Source: Aotearoamyces nothofagi
Lineage: Eukaryota; Ascomycota; Leotiomycetes; Leotiales; Tympanidaceae
NCBI GenBank assembly: GCA_015345905.1
Contig: JADDTR010000031.1
Span: 62,001-126,000, forward strand
Direction of reading: 5' to 3'
DNA length: 64,000 nt
Part shown: piece by piece, positions 5,474 to 19,101 of the stretch
Numbering within the stretch: the first letter of the stretch is position 1
Layout: each line of letters opens with the position of its first letter
Position numbers and translations under genes: made by a program
Notes under the pieces: model-generated
Databases searched by the model: none
Told to the model about the DNA's origin: nothing
Seen by the model: the letters and a program-made list of their open reading frames with translations, nothing else

Positions 5474-7065
5474 ATGGCAGATACTCCTAAATCGCAAGTC
5501 CCACTGGATCCGCGGGAACAGCCGATCCTGGATCAGTTGATGTCGATTCAAACTGATTTGACTCTACTCAAGCAAGACCGGTCTACATACGTCAAGTCAT
5601 CTGTTGTGATGCCATTATACGAAAAGGTGATTGAGCAGGTCAAGAGACTAAACGAAATTCGTAGTAATCATCCACTAGAGAACAGAGGTAGGTTATTAAA
5701 CCTGTGCGCCGAGTGTTGAGAAAAGCTAATACAAGATTTCATTAGTCGATCGAGTGCTAGACTGTTGTTTTCAACTCCTATCTCTATTTTTTATGACCAT
5801 TGGAAGGAACAACGAAGCCCCCGCTGCATACGCTCTGACTTCGACAATACAGAGACTTTTGGACCATCTTACAGAGTCAAACCTTTACTCCGCGAAGGAC
5901 CTTAACCATATCGCCCATACTATAGAAAACCTGGGTGATATAGTCCATTCTGCCGAAGGCTCATACTCTTCAAAACTTGTCAATCTACTAGCGAATCGCC
6001 TGACTGCTTGCCGAGAATCGTGCCAGAACCTGCAGCAACAGCTGGAACGGCTAGATCCGGGACTGGCAGAAACACACGAGAAGCTTATCTCAATCTTACG
6101 GAATATATCTTTAGCCAATACGAAATCCAAGGTGAGCGAGGTCAACAGTGCTAAGCACATCTTGGGCATTGCCTTGTTGTACGTTGCTGACAGCTCAATT
6201 CCAGTTCCCAACTACAGAGGTTAAGAAGTACCAACAGCAACTAAAGGAGATAGACACTAGACGAGCAAATGGCCATTGGGTCAATGAAAAGGGGGAGTTT
6301 CTGGCCGGAAATCAAGAGTTGTCTGAACTTCTCAAACGAATTATAGAATGGTCGGAAGTTGTCCTAGAACGGTTAGTTGAACATATGAATCATATACTGC
6401 CACATGCTAATATTAAATAGAAAGGGTGTGATGCCAAAGGCTTTTACACCGACATATGATGTCTTAGTCGATATTCGAAATCAGCTCGAAAAGCTCTCTT
6501 TAACTCAGGCTTGGTCGTTACGAGAGACTGATCTGTATGATTTCCAACGACAATTGGATCGTATAGATGAGTCTCGGGTCGCAGGTAATTTCCATGACAA
6601 GGATGGAAATCCAGCCGAAATCTATGTCCAACGGGTAAGGCTGACACCGCTCATGCTTAAATTATGCTGACTCGATAGACCCTACTATATCTCATTCGCC
6701 GGAGCTATGGTTATATCTACTATCTGATGGTTTCATCTGAGCCAGTGTCCGAAGCCCTACAACCAGTTTATAATCAATTACAGACACTGAGGCGATGCTT
6801 GATTGAAGTTAAGAACTCTGGCGGAGTAAGCTCACCACGGGAGCTTTATCCTTACAGCATGAAAGTAAGATATCTATTTCAGCTTGTTTCCAACAGTTCT
6901 AACCCCTTCCAGCTCAATTCAATAGACAATATGCGAGTTGATGGAAAGTTTATGGTTGGCGGGGAAATTCCTGAAGGCCAAGGAAGTGTTAACGACCTGC
7001 TGGCAGAGTGTTTCGAACTCAACTATGAGCTTCGTGTGGCTGCTGAAACTGAGGGTGATGAGTGA
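5474..7065 (+). CDS. UPF0662 / DUF2408 family protein
   Basis: Six exons, 5474..5687, 5746..6131, 6205..6371, 6421..6634, 6679..6864 and 6913..7065, join in frame to 439 residues. The order of blocks matches the fungal DUF2408 (UPF0662) family, whose S. pombe member is SPAC30C2.08 as I recall: an N-terminal helical repeat (LDPREQPILDQLMSIQTDLT, then LLKQDRSTYVKSSVVMPLYE) and a second related repeat later (VMPKAFTPTYDVLVDIRNQL, then LTQAWSLRETDLYDFQRQLD). Two such repeats are the family pattern. The chain is predicted to be almost all helix, without a signal peptide or membrane span. Molecular function is not known to me. All five introns are 45-75 nt with normal borders. Confidence 0.9.
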
Positions 7066-8901: not shown

Positions 8902-9753
8902 CTACCAAGGACCAACTCGAACGGGCAAGTTCGTACCGTAGGTGCCGGAGAAGAGTTGATTTCTGATAGAGTTCGGATCGCCTGTTTCCATGCTTGGGCC
9001 TCCACCAATCCATCCTAAGTTTGAGCCCAGAGCGTTGACCGCCACCTGCATCCTACCACCAGATTCCTCATGGTGCTTCGTAAGCTTTTGGTCCCATTCA
9101 CCGTTATGCAGTTGAAAACCCCCGCCTTTCTTCGATGCTTCACTGATCACTACAGCCCAAGCTCGCGAGATCTCATCGTATGAGTTGTCTTTGTGGTGTC
9201 GATGTGACGAGCTCTCCCAATCTGGTAACTGATGAATGACTTTCGTGACTCCATCAAGGAACGCAAGTGATGTTGTAACTTGAGTTTCGTTGGGTGGTAG
9301 GTAGTGAGGAACAAAGTCGGTAATGGAGTCGATTAAAGCTGTTAATGCACTCCTTACTCTATTGTATGCGTAGTCCGATCCGTTATTGCCCCCAAAAGGG
9401 AATGCAGATCTTAACTTATCTTGATATTGGTCAAGGACATCAAGAGCTGATGCAACAGAGGGTCGTGGCGCTGATGTGACGACTTCGGATCCAATTTCTG
9501 GGTGTCGTTCACAGATGGATTGAAGTACTGAACGTAGTGACTGGGCATCGAGGGTTTCGAGTAGTCGTGGAAGGGCGAGAGGACGGCCAGTAACTTCGTT
9601 GCCTCTCACCTTTTTTGTTGGACGCGCGAGCATTCGAGCAGCTATGGCAGGGGAGGCAAGAGGGGAGACAGACATGCTATCGTCACCAGCATCTTGGGAA
9701 CCCGACCGACCCAGGTCGGTGTCGTCGTCTGCCTTACGTTTCCGACCGCTCAT
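8902..9753 (-). CDS. STS1: Nuclear proteasome tethering factor Sts1/Cut8
   Basis: Sts1/Cut8 holds proteasomes in the nucleus or at its envelope and is needed for turnover of nuclear proteins and for chromosome segregation. It is a single exon of 283 residues. The N-terminus has a basic nuclear-localisation-like stretch (SGRKRKADDD) and the family block MLARPTKKVRGNEVTGRPLA followed by LPRLLETLDAQSLRSVLQSI and CERHPEIGSEVV, the dimerisation and Cut8 signature. The helical bundle follows (YAYNRVRSALTALIDSITDF, then FLDGVTKVIHQLPDW). It ends with LGWIGGG, then SIRNQLFSGTYG. The ATG at 9753 is the first in frame. Length is normal for filamentous fungi. Confidence 0.93.
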   Translation of the reverse strand: MSGRKRKADDDTDLGRSGSQDAGDDSMSVSPLASPAIAARMLARPTKKVRGNEVTGRPLALPRLLETLDAQSLRSVLQSICERHPEIGSEVVTSAPRPSVASALDVLDQYQDKLRSAFPFGGNNGSDYAYNRVRSALTALIDSITDFVPHYLPPNETQVTTSLAFLDGVTKVIHQLPDWESSSHRHHKDNSYDEISRAWAVVISEASKKGGGFQLHNGEWDQKLTKHHEESGGRMQVAVNALGSNLGWIGGGPSMETGDPNSIRNQLFSGTYGTNLPVRVGPW

Positions 9754-10525
9754 CGTGGGAGAAAAGGGGCTAGCTATTCCATGGCAGTGAGTATCAGTAT
9801 GCGGCGAGGAAAATTAACCTTCAAGATATCACCTACTTGGCGTGGTGGGAGAGTGTCGGGCGGCGTTATGGTGATGAGGGTAGAAGGTGGGATGTTGTGA
9901 CAGCAAAGTGTTCATGATCGCTGGAAGTGTCACCAGGCTCAATGACTGAGGCCTCTGCCTATGATCCTGGTGCTTTGGAAAGGCCGAGAATGTTTGAGGT
10001 GGAAAGAGTTGGTATGAAAGAGATTAATCGGTGAGGAATTATCGAGTTCGACAGAGGGTCCTCGACAGAGGGTCCTCAACAGCAGTCGGCAAGGAACCGA
10101 GACAACGCTATCCGTACGAGGCACAAAGGCGATACATACTGAATCATAGTACCTACAGCAGGGACGGACCAACGAGAAAAAAAAAATTCAAAACTGGAAT
10201 TTCAGAAACAGCGAACGTGTCACTTATTATAAGACATGCTTTTGATTTAATGTAGCTTCAATAAGTCTATGGATGCATTCTATTGGGAAAACAATTAAGT
10301 TTAAGGCTTAATTATTCTACCGCCATGTTAGACTGTATCGCTAGAATCTCGAATTTACCCGAATGAGACAGCCATCCATGAACTTCTTCCCTCGCAGGCG
10401 AAGAAAATGAAAGTAGGTGCTCGAATCGTCGAAAAGTGTATCCTCTTTTTGTACCCATCACGCTCATAGCCTCGCTGCTCCTTCAATAGGAGAGCCATCT
10501 GCATGCGGAGATTGATCAACTATCA
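9754..10525. other. STS1 upstream region with a 14-bp tandem duplication
   Basis: This holds the STS1 promoter and the 3' flank of the next minus-strand gene. A perfect head-to-tail duplication of CGACAGAGGGTCCT lies at 10049..10076. Open frames here show no family resemblance. Confidence 0.4.
10049..10076. repeat. Tandem duplication, 14 bp x 2
   Basis: Two adjacent identical copies of CGACAGAGGGTCCT occur about 300 nt upstream of the STS1 start codon. It is probably a replication-slippage duplication. Confidence 0.7.
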
Positions 10526-13500
10526 TTAAAAGGGGTTTCTACCATGCGGCTTTCCTTTCAACGGGGTTCGCACTTTTGCTAGGCTTTCTTGCAAACGACG
10601 GCTAACATCGTCCTGAATATCGGTAACGGTGTTTTTTTTGACAAATGATAGCGGCGGTCTTCCAGTGCTTGGATGTGGTGCAGGATTGTATCCCATCGGC
10701 TTGAAAGGGCTGTTCTTGGACGTGCAATTCGATGGAACTGAAGATGATTCGCTCGTGCTGCTCGCAAATCTTGAAGACATTAGACCCTTTCCCTTAGGAA
10801 TATGCTGGCGGGTGGGAGATGCAACCCCAGCCTCAGGATGAGTGGCAGGAACACTGTACTTGGCATCAAAGATGCTTGGACCTGGTTCACTAATTGATGC
10901 TCCAAACGGGGATGGCTTTGCCATATCAACATCATTGATTGAAAGCCCTGGTGACTTGGCTAACGGCATCTCAATTCGCATACTCTGCTCATCTGAGTTA
11001 TCCCCTTCACGGGCAGTCGTAAAAGAATCCGACGTTGAGCTCGAATCTGTACTAAGTCTCGGACAATGTCCTGAGGACATTACTCGTCGCTCGAAACTGG
11101 TAGGATACTGACCAGGCATAGTTCTTACCGTAGAACTTGGATACGATGGCTTTAGAGTCTCCATTGAAGCCTTAGAGTTTTGGCTGCCGAAGCTGTCGCT
11201 TCTTCCCAGAGTTTTGCAATTACGATCGGTAGGACCGAATCCTTTGATCTCCTGAACAGCTGGAAATAGTCGGCGGGCGATAGTCTCGACTTCCTCACCA
11301 TCGGTGCTACTTGAGTGATGGAGAATGTTAGATTTCCTCACACGCACATCATCTGAAGGTGGCGGCATGCTTCCAGCTCCGAAGACAGCCTCAGGACCTT
11401 CAGCTGTACTGTTGACCAGCTTTTGCTTGTCTACCACATTCCCTAAAGGACCGACATTCGCATCTTGCACACCTGCTAATTCGGCAGAAACATGTCCACT
11501 TCTCTCGATAGCTGTAGACAAGACAACCTCCTCCCGAAAAGTTAGCTGTTTTGAGACGCCCAATCGCAAGTTATCAACATTGGGACCAGCTTTCGTCTTC
11601 GGGCTAGGACTCGAGGTTGGCTGAGGTTTGGTGTTGTCTGCGAATCTTGAGCCTGAAAGACCCACTATCGTGGGAAGCGATTTTGGAATATCCTTCTTAA
11701 CGACAGGCTGAACATCTGGCCTTGAAGATAGAGTAGGGTTTGACAACTCACACTGCTTGGGTTTTGATGATAGCCCATCCGCGTACTTTGAGCCTGCTAG
11801 CCCTTTGCTAATTGGGACCTGATTGGGCTTTTTAGAAAGTAGCGGTGCTATCTGACCAGTCTGGCTTCCAGGATCACTGCTGATTACAGTTTCATACGCC
11901 GTTGGATCGGCCATTCTGTTGTTATGCTCACATTTCTTTGGAGGAGCAACAACTGCAGAAGTTTCCCAAATATTGATGCGATCATTGCTTGGTATATGGT
12001 CTTGGTTGACAGTAGGAGGCCCTGATTTACCAGACTTGATAGCCTTTTCTGGTTTTGATCTCTTCTCAATACCTGCGACAATTGGGAGTCCAAGACGTGT
12101 GGTATTCATGATTCTTCCAGATGTTGGGGTCTGCACAGCCTTATCATTCAGCGGTGTCATTACTAGAGTTGTAAGGTGACTACTGTTAAGAGTCGAGCTC
12201 GTATGCTTCCCAGCAGCAGGCAGCCATTCGTCAAGCAACAGTTGCTTTGTCACAGTTCGAGCTTCGCTCTTCAATTGCATTAGCTCATCGATTGTATACA
12301 TGATGCGACTATCATTTGGCGTTTTCGAGTGTGTATTGACTGACGGAGTGGATATGGGCGCCGGTTTGCTCGAATTTGTCGTGATACCAGCCTGAGAGTC
12401 AATAATTTTTGGCGTGGGGCTATCCTGGATTTGAGCCCTGTCTAGCATCTTCATACTGAGGCCTTTAACAAATGAACCTGCCATCTCTTTAGGGAATGCT
12501 TGGAAGGTCTCGGACTTCTTGTTCAGAAAATTTCCCACCACGTCCTTGGCTGCGTCTGCATAACGGGATGTTGCCAGACCACGACCAAAGGCATGTTGGT
12601 TCTGTGTCAAGATTGGGGCAGTCAGCTTTTGTGCATCTTTTGGATAATCTGGAGTTTTGGAGAAATCGAGTACGGCAAGCTGATCGTCGACTCCAGACAC
12701 AAGTGGGTTCAATAGCTCCCCTTCAGCAGATGGGCTAGATTTTGCTATCCATGTGGATAGTTGGCCCTCGAAAGGTCCGTATGCGTTGATAGCCTCAAGC
12801 GTAGCGTCTACTGCTCCGTCGTCCATCAAGCTTAGTAGATCTTGGGCGAATCTGGACAACGACTTCGCAGGAATGTGATCAGGTTCGTCAAAGCAGATGA
12901 GCTTTTCATTCTCTTCGAGAGATGCTAGATCAGCCATGTACTTGTTGCCAATGTAATTACTAGTTGCTGGGCGATTCGACTGGTCATGGACAGGTGCTCC
13001 AGACAGTGCCCAGAGCAAGTTTCCTTCTGTGGGCATGGTGGAGCTTTTCGTTGAAGTGCCCAACAATGCGATATTTGGGAATTCAAATGACGGTGTTGCC
13101 TTGTAACGGTCGATAATGTCAGCAAAACTCTTTGCGTAATACGGTAACCGTGGTGTCAGTGTCCATCTCATAATTTGTCCTGCCATATTTGGAGCATCAA
13201 ATCCAACAAACTTCGATGCAGAAGTATATCGGAAATTGTGCGAAAGGGGATGTTGCAGGAAGATCTCATCGGCAATTTGAATCACCACGATTATGGATGT
13301 CTTTCCGTTGGGGACTGTACTCACAACGCTGGCTGTTCCTTGGCCGAGGTACTCATTGTTATGATCCGTCGTATCTCTCACCTCTACCTTGGCGTCCATG
13401 TGGTAAAGATCATCGCATGCAGGAATGGTAAGTATGGCCTGCTTAGGAGCCGGTTGAGATGACTGAAAAGTATGAGTACTTGAGATACGAGTTGAGGTTT

Positions 13501-14707
13501 CATAGGGTTGTCCTACCTTAGATGGTTTGTTGACGGATGGTGACTTGGCATGCATGATGATGTTCCTGTCTAGACCACTTGGCCCCGTTCCTACTATATC
13601 GCTCGAGACTGTCTTGAGGATAGCATTGTTGACTTGGACGCTCGAACCCCCGGACTCCTTCCCAGTAGCTTCACTGGAATCGTTCTTATGGACAACCTTG
13701 TTGTCCCAACTATTCTCAAGGAAAGTTTCCGGACTTGACAGTTGAAACTTTTTACTAGACTGCCTATACCGATTCGGTGAACGTTGATTAGGGAGACCAC
13801 TTCCTTGGTTGCTTGCTATTGGGAGATCAGTAACTGATCGAGTGTCTTCGAACGAGAGGGTTGGCTTTGGTGCCGGAACAATGACAGGATGCCTCGCAAA
13901 ATCAGTGGGTGCACTACGAGCAGCACTTCTGACATGACCTTGAGGTGATCCAGCTCCTCGTCTTCGCAAGCGTTTGAGGACATCCTCAACTTGGGAAACA
14001 CCACCTCGTACCGCACGAGATGTCCGGCGTCCTTGGTGAACGGGAGTATCATTACCGCTTGATCTATAATAGAACCCACGTTAGAAGGAAGCTCGATAAA
14101 AGAAAAGTATAGAAGCAATACCTCAAAGTCATATGACTATTTCCTCTCGATTGTGCGCCACCACGACCACCTTGATAGGAGTAGCCACCGTTTCCTACAG
14201 CATTTGCGAGTCTAGCTCTGAGTCCAGCACGATGAGACTGACCCGAGTCCAGGCTGTCGAGTGCAAGCTCTGCTTCGGGAACATCATCAAATTTGACACC
14301 TGGACACGAAATATATTAGCCCACGGTCACCCTCCCTAAATGGAAGATATTATACCTCTCCAAAGTTCAATTAGATTTGAACGCTGCTGGACAATCTTGA
14401 ACTCTTCACTATGAGGATCATTTGCCTTCCTATTTCTATTGAGCATATCAAGATCAGGTTGGTCACTAGGGCGCGGCCCTATAGGTAGGGCATCGATTCT
14501 AGCATTGCCAAGTTCCTCCTGTATGTCAGAGTGTTAGCAGTCCATTGTTGGGCTTGATCGTGTTTTCACAACAACATGCTAGCCGATGAAAGAGCAATAT
14601 AAGAGTCTTCATACCATCATAGCAGCTCGAATATTAGCCACTTGTTCGGCCGACCAGTTCATGTCAGTTGGGGCAGTGCCCTGGTCCCCATCACTTAGAG
14701 TCCCCAT
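10526..14707 (-). CDS. Large disordered protein with a Caf20-type eIF4E-binding motif
   Basis: Four exons, 14707..14615, 14518..14356, 14299..14122 and 14063..10526, encode about 1323 residues. The start MGTLSDGDQGTAPTDMNWSA follows the first in-frame ATG. A conserved-looking N-terminal block reads ALPIGPRPSDQPDLDMLNRN, then EEFKIVQQRSNLIELWRGVK. It is followed by an Arg/Gly segment and VSQVEDVLKRLRRRG. The rest is mainly Ser/Thr/Pro/Lys-rich and probably disordered. At roughly residue 720 (coding bases 12268..12308) it has MYTIDELMQLKSEA. This matches the YxxxxL-phi eIF4E-binding consensus and is nearly identical to yeast Caf20 YTIDELFQLK. Four GLxxS[RK][FY]A motifs are spread through the chain. 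I infer an eIF4E-binding translational regulator (Eap1/4E-T-like in size). The gene model is solid; the function is inference. Confidence 0.8.
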
Positions 14708-16618: not shown

Positions 16619-19101
16619 ATGGTGGCGGGCGCACTTCTACGATGTCGCGGATCTGCGGCGAGGGTATGTGCTTGTGGAAATGCGATAGGTTATTCCTTAC
16701 TGACTCATCAATCTAGAAGAGTTTACATCCCGCGGATCTCCTCAGAACTCGATTCACGCGCGCCCTTGCCACAGTCAACCCCAATATCTCTTCCTATAAG
16801 CCAGACATCGAGTCGCGGACGCCTCCCTATCCAAAACTCCTAAAAAGGCTTGCAGATGTACGGAGGGTACTCGGCGCAGATCGATCCCTAACACTTGCCG
16901 AAAAAATCCTGTATTCCCACCTCGACAACCCCGAAGAAGCATTGCTATCAGGCACAGACAGTGGCCTCAACATCCGTGGCAATGCGACTCTCAAACTTAA
17001 GCCAGACCGGGTGGCAATGCAAGATGCATCTGCTCAAATGGCACTCCTACAATTTATGACCTGCAACCTTCCTTCGACTTCAGTTCCAGCCAGCATCCAC
17101 TGCGATCATATGATTGTTGGCCAACGTGGAGCTGACGTTGATTTACCAGAGTCGATCAAAGGCAATAAGGAAGTTTTTGACTTTTTAGAATCGGCTGCGA
17201 AGAAATATGGTATTGAATTCTGGCCTCCCGGAGCTGGTATTATTCACCAGACCGTGTTAGAGAATTATTCTGCACCGGGATTAATGATGCTCGGAACGGA
17301 CAGCCACACGCCTAATGCAGGGGGCTTGGGAGCTATTGCTATCGGGGTAGGTGGTGCAGATGCTGTTGATGCCTTAGTCGATTTCCCTTGGGAATTAAAA
17401 GCACCTCGAGTTCTAGGTGTGCGACTTGAAGGCGAATTGAGCGGCTGGGCCTCTCCAAAAGATGTTATCATGCATCTTGCTGGGAGACTTAGTGTCAGAG
17501 GTGGAACTGGGTTTATTATTGAATACCACGGACCTGGTGTCGACTCGCTGAGCGCTACTGGTATGGCGACAATTTGCAACATGGGAGCAGAGGTCGGCGC
17601 AACGACTTCGCTGTTCCCATTCTCGCCAAGCATGGTTCCATACCTTCAGTCAACACATCGTGGATCTATTGCCCAGGAAGCCGCGGCCATTGCTTCATCA
17701 CCTTCGCTACACAACCTCCTACGGGCAGATCAAGGGGCGAAGTATGATGAGCTTATTACCATCGATCTCTCTACCATCGAGCCACATGTTAACGGTCCAT
17801 TTACCCCTGACCTATCGACTCCTCTATCAGCCTTTGCTAAGGCTGTGAAGACAAACAAATGGCCCGAGACGGTCTCAGCTGGTCTTATCGGCAGTTGCAC
17901 AAATAGTTCATATGAAGATATGACCCGTGCTGAAGATCTTGTCAAGCAAGCTTCCGCCGCTGGCCTTAAGCCTGCGATTAACTTCTTTATTACTCCTGGA
18001 AGTGAGCAAATCCGAGCAACTCTCGACAGGGACGAAACTCTAGCAACATTTTCAGAAGCCGGTGGAATTGTCCTCGCCAACGCATGTGGGCCTTGCATCG
18101 GGCAATGGAAGCGTACAGATGGTGTCTCCAAAGGCGAAGCCAACGCAATATTCACATCCTACAACCGTAACTTCCGCGGCCGCAATGATGGCAACCCGGA
18201 TACTATGAACTTCCTCGCCTCCCCTGAAATCGTCACCGCGATGTCCTATGCTGGAAGCACAACCTTCAACCCTCTCACCGACAGCATCCCTACCCCCTCC
18301 GGCGAACCCTTCCGCTTCTCTCCTCCCCAAGGTTCATCCCTCCCTATCCGTGGCTTCGAAGGAGGAAACCCCGACTTCTTCCCCTCTTCCGCCGCTCCCA
18401 ACCCTGATACCCCTGTTGTCGTCTCCCCCACTTCTGACCGTCTCGCGCTCCTTGAACCCTTTGCGCCCTTCCCATCCAGCGATCTCAAATTCCTCCGCGT
18501 CCTCTATAAAGTCACCGGGAAATGCACAACCGACACCATCTCCGCCGCCGGCCCGTGGCTGAAATACAAGGGTCATCTTCCTAACATCAGCGCCAACACT
18601 CTCATTGGCGCCATCAACGCCGCAACCGGCGAGACAAACGTCGCTTACGATGTCGATGGCTCGACATCTGGTATCCCGGAACTTGCTGGGAAGTGGAAAG
18701 ATCAAGGTCTCGAATGGCTTGTTGTCGCTGAGCACAATTACGGCGAAGGCTCAGCACGAGAGCACGCCGCATTACAGCCCCGCTATCTTGGCGGACGTGT
18801 CATCCTTGCAAAGAGTTTCGCGCGAATCCACGAGACGAATCTGAAGAAACAGGGAGTGGTACCGTTAACTTTTGTCGACGAGGCAGACTATGACAGAATC
18901 GATGCGTGTGATGAAGTCAGCACGCTAGGGCTGTATGATATGTTGAAGAATGGTGGAAAGGGGCAAGTGGAATTGTTCGTTAAAAAGAGGAACGGAGAAG
19001 AGTTCGTTGTCAAGACAAAACATACACTGAGTGAGGACCAGTGCGGATTCGTTTTAGCAGGTAGTGCATTAAATTTGCTGGCTAAGATGAAGAAGCCATA
19101 A
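16619..19101 (+). CDS. Mitochondrial aconitate hydratase paralogue (Aco2-type, putative homocitrate dehydratase)
   Basis: Two exons, 16619..16663 and 16717..19101, give 809 residues. The first exon and early second exon (MVAGALLRCRGSAARKSLHP, then LLRTRFTRAL) form an Arg-rich mitochondrial presequence. Aconitase landmarks are in order: HCDHMI, LGTDSHTPNAGGLG, IGSCTNSS (first 4Fe-4S cysteine), NACGPCIGQW (the other two cysteines), EGSAREHAA and KSFARIHETNLKKQG in the swivel domain. A Pro/Ser-rich linker (SLPIRGFEGG, then DFFPSSAAP) joins the domains. It resembles the second fungal aconitase (yeast Aco2, Aspergillus AcoB), which acts in the lysine pathway; the choice between the two aconitase types is by memory of the linker and less certain. 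A perfect TGACTCA lies in intron 1. Confidence 0.9.
16701..16707. promoter_or_regulatory. Gcn4/CpcA-type site TGACTCA in intron 1 of the aconitase paralogue
   Basis: A perfect TGACTCA lies inside the first intron, 82 nt after the start codon. It overlaps the CTGAC that looks like the splicing branch site. Gcn4/CpcA controls lysine-pathway genes in fungi. Whether an intronic copy works is unknown. Confidence 0.35.

What the first reader, a model, noticed from the sequence alone, without database searches (positions are those of the whole stretch)
12268..12308. Caf20-type eIF4E-binding motif in a 1323-residue unknown protein
The minus-strand product reads MYTIDELMQLKSEA. The consensus for eIF4E binders is YxxxxL-phi, and yeast Caf20 has, from memory, KYTIDELFQLKP. 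The identity over ten positions is far beyond the loose consensus. The host protein is long and disordered, like metazoan 4E-T or yeast Eap1, and unlike the small Caf20. This suggests a large filamentous-fungal translational repressor that I do not know to be described.
Basis: partly seen in the sequence, partly recalled or inferred. Interest (0 to 1): 0.75.

Follow-up and report, generated by a model that had tools for sequence, protein, structure and literature searches.

The report
Candidate eIF4E-binding site, unknown fungal protein
A long, unnamed protein of a mould-type fungus carries a short stretch that is nearly identical to the part of a yeast protein known to grip the cap-binding translation factor eIF4E, so it is probably an undescribed controller of protein synthesis, although its relatives could not be found to confirm this.

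Summary
A four-exon minus-strand gene (14707-10526) encodes 1323 aa. MYTIDELMQLKSEA lies at 12301-12260, 7-8 bases from the stated place; Tyr is residue 734. YTIDELMQLK matches yeast p20/Caf20 YTIDELFQLK at 9 of 10 positions and fits YX4L-phi-X2-K/R. Composition predicts about 4e-6 such matches per 4-million-residue proteome (assumed size). A single-sequence model puts a helix at 736-758. The fungus has a canonical eIF4E with KHPL, SVEEFW and LWL kept. I read it as a genuine eIF4E-binding site in a large scaffold; binding and repression are inferred.

The protein matches no Pfam family, so neither Caf20, Eap1 nor 4E-T. Another gene of the genome strongly matches Pfam Eap1 (PF20566, E 2e-233), so this is not the only candidate. 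Orthologue conservation, the key test, could not be done: two word-based protein searches found no relative, though the database holds many filamentous-fungal eIF4Es. Also found: four copies of GLxxS[RK][FY]A in this protein, none elsewhere in the window.

The parts
14615..14707 (-). exon 1, start codon ATG at 14707
   Evidence: spliced reading; splice signals
14356..14518 (-). exon 2
   Evidence: intron 14614-14519 GT-AG, CTAAC
14122..14299 (-). exon 3
   Evidence: intron 14355-14300 GT-AG, CTAAT
10526..14063 (-). exon 4 with most of the 1323-residue protein and the stop codon
   Evidence: intron 14121-14064 GT-AG, CTAAC
12260..12301 (-). MYTIDELMQLKSEA, residues 733-746; core YTIDELMQLK at 12298-12269
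   Evidence: Caf20 peptide
12224..12292 (-). predicted helix, residues 736-758, running through the motif
   Evidence: single-sequence AlphaFold2 model of residues 690-800; ten-residue blocks 82, 78 and 59 pLDDT over the helix, mean 54.8 for the piece
12317..12322 (-). Thr726-Pro727, eight residues before Tyr734, as a Thr-Pro stands eight residues before the Tyr in human 4E-BP1
   Evidence: regulatory role is inference
12557..12580 (-). repeat motif 1 GLATSRYA (residue 640)
11780..11803 (-). repeat motif 2 GLAGSKYA (residue 899)
11639..11662 (-). repeat motif 3 GLSGSRFA (residue 946)
10763..10786 (-). repeat motif 4 GLMSSRFA (residue 1238)

Best explanation
The gene encodes a large scaffold protein of a filamentous ascomycete with one true eIF4E-binding site. 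Residues 734-743 form a helix that docks on the dorsal face of canonical eIF4E through Tyr734, Leu739 and Met740, as Caf20 does. Because eIF4G of the same fungus uses the same kind of motif (YDKEFLL), the two would compete, so the protein would hold capped mRNAs out of eIF4F. The four GLxxS[RK][FY]A motifs probably recruit a second partner in several copies, and Thr726 or other S/T-P sites may switch binding. Shown: gene model, motif, statistics, intact eIF4E dorsal residues, the eIF4G motif, the repeats. Inferred: binding, competition, repression, partner recruitment, phosphorylation.
For: 9 of 10 identity to the Caf20 eIF4E-binding helix; expected 3.7e-6 per assumed proteome and nothing above 5 of 10 elsewhere in six frames of the window. 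Fits YX4L-phi-X2-K/R as given in PMC8242001 (passages). Only YxxxxL-phi match in the protein. Predicted helix 736-758. Own canonical eIF4E aligns to 6FBZ/6FC0 (Chaetomium thermophilum) and to the yeast eIF4E of 6FC3 with KHPL, VEEFW and LWL kept (that these are dorsal-face residues is recalled). Own eIF4G has KYDKEFLLQFQ. Flank TPNDSRIM parallels 4E-BP1 TPGGTRII, 7 of 18 identical over flank plus motif.
Against: No orthologue was found, so conservation is untested. No complex could be modelled. The helix comes from a single-sequence model. The 4E-BP1 likeness alone is weak: 17 of 1000 shuffles reach 7 identities or more. A loose class motif Y[TS]x[DE][DEQ]L-phi-xx[KR] is expected 0.7 times per assumed proteome. 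The genome has another, family-supported eIF4E-associated gene.
Confidence: 0.62

Rival explanations
1. Coincidence or convergence without binding: a helical acidic stretch that happens to resemble Caf20 in a protein that never meets eIF4E.
For: No relative of the protein was detected, so nothing shows the motif is kept. Loosely similar motifs are expected about 0.7 times per proteome and YX4L-phi-X2-K/R about 330 times.
Confidence: 0.2
2. It binds eIF4E but is not a repressor: it stabilises eIF4E on mRNA, or places or stores eIF4E-bound mRNA, as proposed for yeast p20.
For: [quoted passage not shown] PMC7139794 (passages) says neither p20 nor Eap1 is an inhibitor of cap-dependent translation.
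Against: Nothing here separates this from repression.
Confidence: 0.15
3. It is the filamentous-fungal 4E-T: eIF4E site plus a DDX6/Dhh1-binding site.
For: An N-terminal NLIELWRGVKFDD (IEL at residue 81, FD at 89) recalls IELTGFD of the human 4E-T peptide in 5ANR.
Against: No PEW, FDF or FDx4F anywhere in the protein; PMC12249416 (passages) gives PEW as part of the motif in GIGYF and 4E-T. IEL is only three residues. Pfam EIF4E-T does not match. The gene on contig C24 has RYTHEELEKLR and DPEW and fits better.
Confidence: 0.03

Closest known systems
Yeast p20/Caf20 (PDB 6FC3)
   Same: Core YTIDEL-phi-QLK, 9 of 10 identical
   Different: Motif is central (734 of 1323), not at the extreme N-terminus; protein far longer; Pfam CAF20 does not match
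Eap1 family, Pfam PF20566
   Same: Large eIF4E-associated protein with a YxxxxL motif
   Different: The window protein does not match the model; another gene of this genome does; no significant BLASTP similarity between its exon 4 and that gene's main ORF (best E 2.4)
Metazoan 4E-T/Cup
   Same: Long protein carrying a YxxxxL-phi site (by description, PMC8984151 passages)
   Different: No PEW-type DDX6 site; called metazoan-specific in PMC8984151; Pfam EIF4E-T not matched
Human 4E-BP1
   Same: Thr-Pro eight residues before Tyr, then RI[IM]Y and L-M in the core
   Different: Small protein, different core residues; Pfam eIF_4EBP not matched

Membership tests
CAF20 (PF17052) | match to the Pfam model | tested here: not met
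   0 families at E up to 5 for exon 4 and up to 10 for the whole protein; none in the genome either, but no control rang
CAF20 (PF17052) | eIF4E motif at the extreme N-terminus of a small protein (PMC8242001 passages) | tested here: not met
   Tyr is residue 734 of 1323
CAF20 (PF17052) | YTIDEL-phi-QLK core helix | tested here: met
Eap1 (PF20566) | match to the Pfam model | tested here: not met
   the family member is on contig C24
4E-T/Cup | PEW plus IEL-type DDX6-binding segment | tested here: not met
   IEL present once, PEW absent (motif)
4E-BP as a functional class (unrelated proteins) | YX4L-phi-X2-K/R in a helix | tested here: met
   (helix from a single-sequence model)
4E-BP as a functional class (unrelated proteins) | partner eIF4E keeps the dorsal residues | tested here: met
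   own eIF4E; among the 120 listed homologues KHPL in 118 and [ST]VE[ED]FW in 119; 43 of 120 do not fit the LWLxxxLxxIGE pattern, with M for the second L or another residue for the first L, or no IGE found
4E-BP as a functional class (unrelated proteins) | motif conserved among orthologues | not tested
4E-BP as a functional class (unrelated proteins) | physical binding to eIF4E and competition with eIF4G | not testable with these tools
   no complex prediction or experiment available

The most novel reading that the evidence does not exclude
A new, fast-evolving class of fungal eIF4E-binding scaffold: a Caf20-grade eIF4E helix with a 4E-BP1-like phosphorylatable flank, in the middle of a long protein that presents four GLxxS[RK][FY]A motifs to an unknown multivalent partner, working beside a separate Eap1-family protein in the same fungus.
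Probability: 0.3. Interest if true: 0.6.

Novelty: new member of a known kind. Interest (0 to 1): 0.42.

Why it matters
PMC7139794 (passages) places p20 and Eap1 only in Saccharomycotina and does not analyse Pezizomycotina further. If this site binds, filamentous ascomycetes have at least one more eIF4E binder than is written down there, with a core almost identical to Caf20 in an otherwise unlike protein. That would bear on how eIF4E motifs arise repeatedly and on how moulds control translation. The prediction rests on two residues and is easy to test.

Tried and rejected
Membership in CAF20, Eap1, 4E-T or 4E-BP by Pfam: rejected (HMMER filters drop most matches above about E 0.1). A paralogue in the genome: searching with exon 4 returned only the gene itself (only the best candidates are scored). 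Relatives among prokaryote and viral contigs, with exon 4: none (14 and 4 pattern stretches, none confirmed). PDB sequence relatives of the motif region, the N-terminus or exon 4: only chance hits, ribosomal S16, Pho85 and CENP-S at E 0.038 or worse. A fold search was not run because the model of 360-660 has pLDDT 34. A 4E-T-like Dhh1 site at IELWRGVKFDD was considered and rejected for lack of PEW. GLxxSRFA as a common proteome-wide motif: 0 in 58 ORFs (25,900 aa) from the first 200 kb of one contig, a small sample.

Limits on the negatives: the protein search needs shared 5-residue words and similar length. One search took its words (at most 100) from 1323 residues and scored only the 7988 candidates sharing most words; one search took them from residues 379-764 and had 5531 candidates. 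The control with eIF4E gave 1234 proteins at E <= 0.001, of which 120 were listed and seen; the nearest named ones, at 84-86%, include Cudoniella and Amylocarpus, both Helotiales. So the database holds relevant fungi, but quickly changing orthologues could still be missed. The genome searches with CAF20, EIF4E-T and eIF_4EBP rang in no control genome, so their silence is not proof of absence.

Full report
What is there. The minus strand carries an open frame of 1184 codons (10526-14080). MYTIDELMQLKSEA is residues 733-746 at 12301-12260, 7-8 bases from the stated coordinates.

Is it more than chance. Yeast p20/Caf20 begins MIKYTIDELFQLKPSLTL (PMC5928113, passages), confirmed by PDB chain 6FC3_B. 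The window matches YTIDELxQLK at 9 of 10 positions. In six frames of the window the next best 10-mers match at 5 positions, and of 2000 shuffles of the protein the best was 7. With amino-acid frequencies from 58 ORFs over 250 codons in a 200-kb sample, the expected number of YTIDEL-phi-QLK in an assumed 4-million-residue proteome is 3.7e-6. The loose consensus means nothing alone: YX4L-phi-X2-K/R is expected about 330 times; PMC7139794 says about 15% of yeast proteins have YxxxxL-phi (passages); PMC3763552 says a database scan with the consensus gave no significant hits because random matches are too likely (passages). At DNA level the 17-base core of YTIDEL with up to 2 mismatches is expected about once per window (mean 1.06), so the strength lies in the longer match.

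Anatomy. The match fits YX4L-phi-X2-K/R as stated in PMC8242001 (passages) and is the only YxxxxL-phi in the protein. A single-sequence model of residues 690-800 places one helix at 736-758, with pLDDT 82, 78 and 59 in the ten-residue blocks over it and 44-54 in the other blocks. A FoldIndex-type score counts 728-802 as foldable. Eight residues before Tyr734 is Thr726-Pro; TPNDSRIMYTIDELMQLK shares 7 of 18 residues with human 4E-BP1 TPGGTRIIYDRKFLMECR (the recalled 41-residue 4E-BP1 segment matched PDB 5BXV_B exactly). Taken alone that is modest: 17 of 1000 shuffles reach 7 or more. PMC8242001 says phosphorylation before and after the motif prevents 4E-BP1 and 4E-BP2 from binding eIF4E; a similar switch here is inference.

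Second feature. GLxxS[RK][FYW]A occurs four times (residues 640, 899, 946, 1238) and nowhere else in six frames of the window. Of 20,000 shuffles 7 had one copy and none had two. The pattern was defined after seeing it. None was in the 58 sampled ORFs. The flanks of the copies differ, so it looks like a repeated short linear motif, probably a docking site. I do not know the partner.

The setting. The genome (25.5 Mb, unnamed) has eIF4E-family matches at three places. The canonical one (L002) is closest in the PDB to the eIF4E of 6FBZ/6FC0 (E 1e-105), from Chaetomium thermophilum (PMC8558276, passages), and keeps KHPL, SVEEFW and LWL, which I recall as dorsal-face residues. Its nearest named database relatives, at 84-86%, include Cudoniella and Amylocarpus (Helotiales), so the host is most likely a leotiomycete; this is inference. 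The second (L001) is closest to 4EHP, eIF4E type 2. The third (L003) is divergent. The genome's eIF4G has KYDKEFLLQFQ.

Pfam finds no family in the protein. The genome holds a different gene with a very strong Pfam Eap1 match (C24:146498-148883, E 2.1e-233; confirmed). Its first ORF reads MGIRYTHEELEKLRQSP, just ahead of the Pfam match, and its main ORF RQERDPEWMDEP; DPEW recalls the EPEW of human 4E-T in 5ANR, though neither piece found a PDB relative by sequence. So this fungus already has an eIF4E-associated protein by family, contrary to the statement that Eap1 is confined to Saccharomycotina (PMC7139794). The window protein's exon 4 has no significant BLASTP similarity to that gene's main ORF and no paralogue was returned.

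What could not be done. The protein therefore diverges fast or is restricted, or the word-based search missed its relatives. No two-chain prediction was available.

In print. Ten literature searches, seen as listings (shown of found: 5 of 5; 2 of 2; 20 of 25; 3 of 3; 20 of 37; 10 of 10; 15 of 17; 2 of 3; 7 of 7; 20 of 29), showed no title or abstract start describing an eIF4E-binding protein of this kind in Pezizomycotina; the search for YTIDEL found three papers, one of them relevant, on yeast p20. PMC8244596 on Magnaporthe eIF4E names mammalian 4E-BP1 and yeast p20 and Eap1 in the passages seen. Subscription papers are mostly not held, and a structural paper on the yeast complexes that I tried by DOI was not.

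Verdict. The motif is real and very unlikely to be chance; binding to eIF4E is probable (0.62 for the scaffold reading), and repression is an inference. By class it is a new candidate member of the functionally defined 4E-BPs, most of which are unrelated to each other (PMC3359775, passages).

Noticed in passing
L027/L028 (G000 C24:146498-148883, +): A gene with a very strong Pfam Eap1 (PF20566) match, RYTHEELEKLR near its start (Glu, not hydrophobic, after the Leu) and DPEW resembling the 4E-T DDX6-binding PEW. It looks like a fungal 4E-T/Eap1, although PMC7139794 confines Eap1 to Saccharomycotina.
   Followed up: partly
L001 (G000 C21:67927-68358, -): A 4EHP-like eIF4E in which the Trp of the dorsal face is Phe (TVEDFFTVY aligned with human SVEQFWRFY), which may change which YxxxxL partners it accepts.
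   Followed up: partly
12557-12580, 11780-11803, 11639-11662, 10763-10786 (-): Four copies of GLxxS[RK][FY]A in the window protein, three with a Pro four residues ahead; partner unknown.
   Followed up: partly
L003/L004 (G000 C44:13515-13977, -): A third, divergent eIF4E-family gene that keeps FW at the dorsal position.
   Followed up: no
8905-9813 (-): Neighbouring gene with a Pfam Cut8 match, nuclear proteasome tether.
   Followed up: no
16717-19098 (+): Neighbouring gene with Pfam aconitase and aconitase C-terminal domains.
   Followed up: no
6679-7062 (+): ORF with a weak but above-cut-off Pfam DUF2408 match (30.9 bits, cut-off 25).
   Followed up: no
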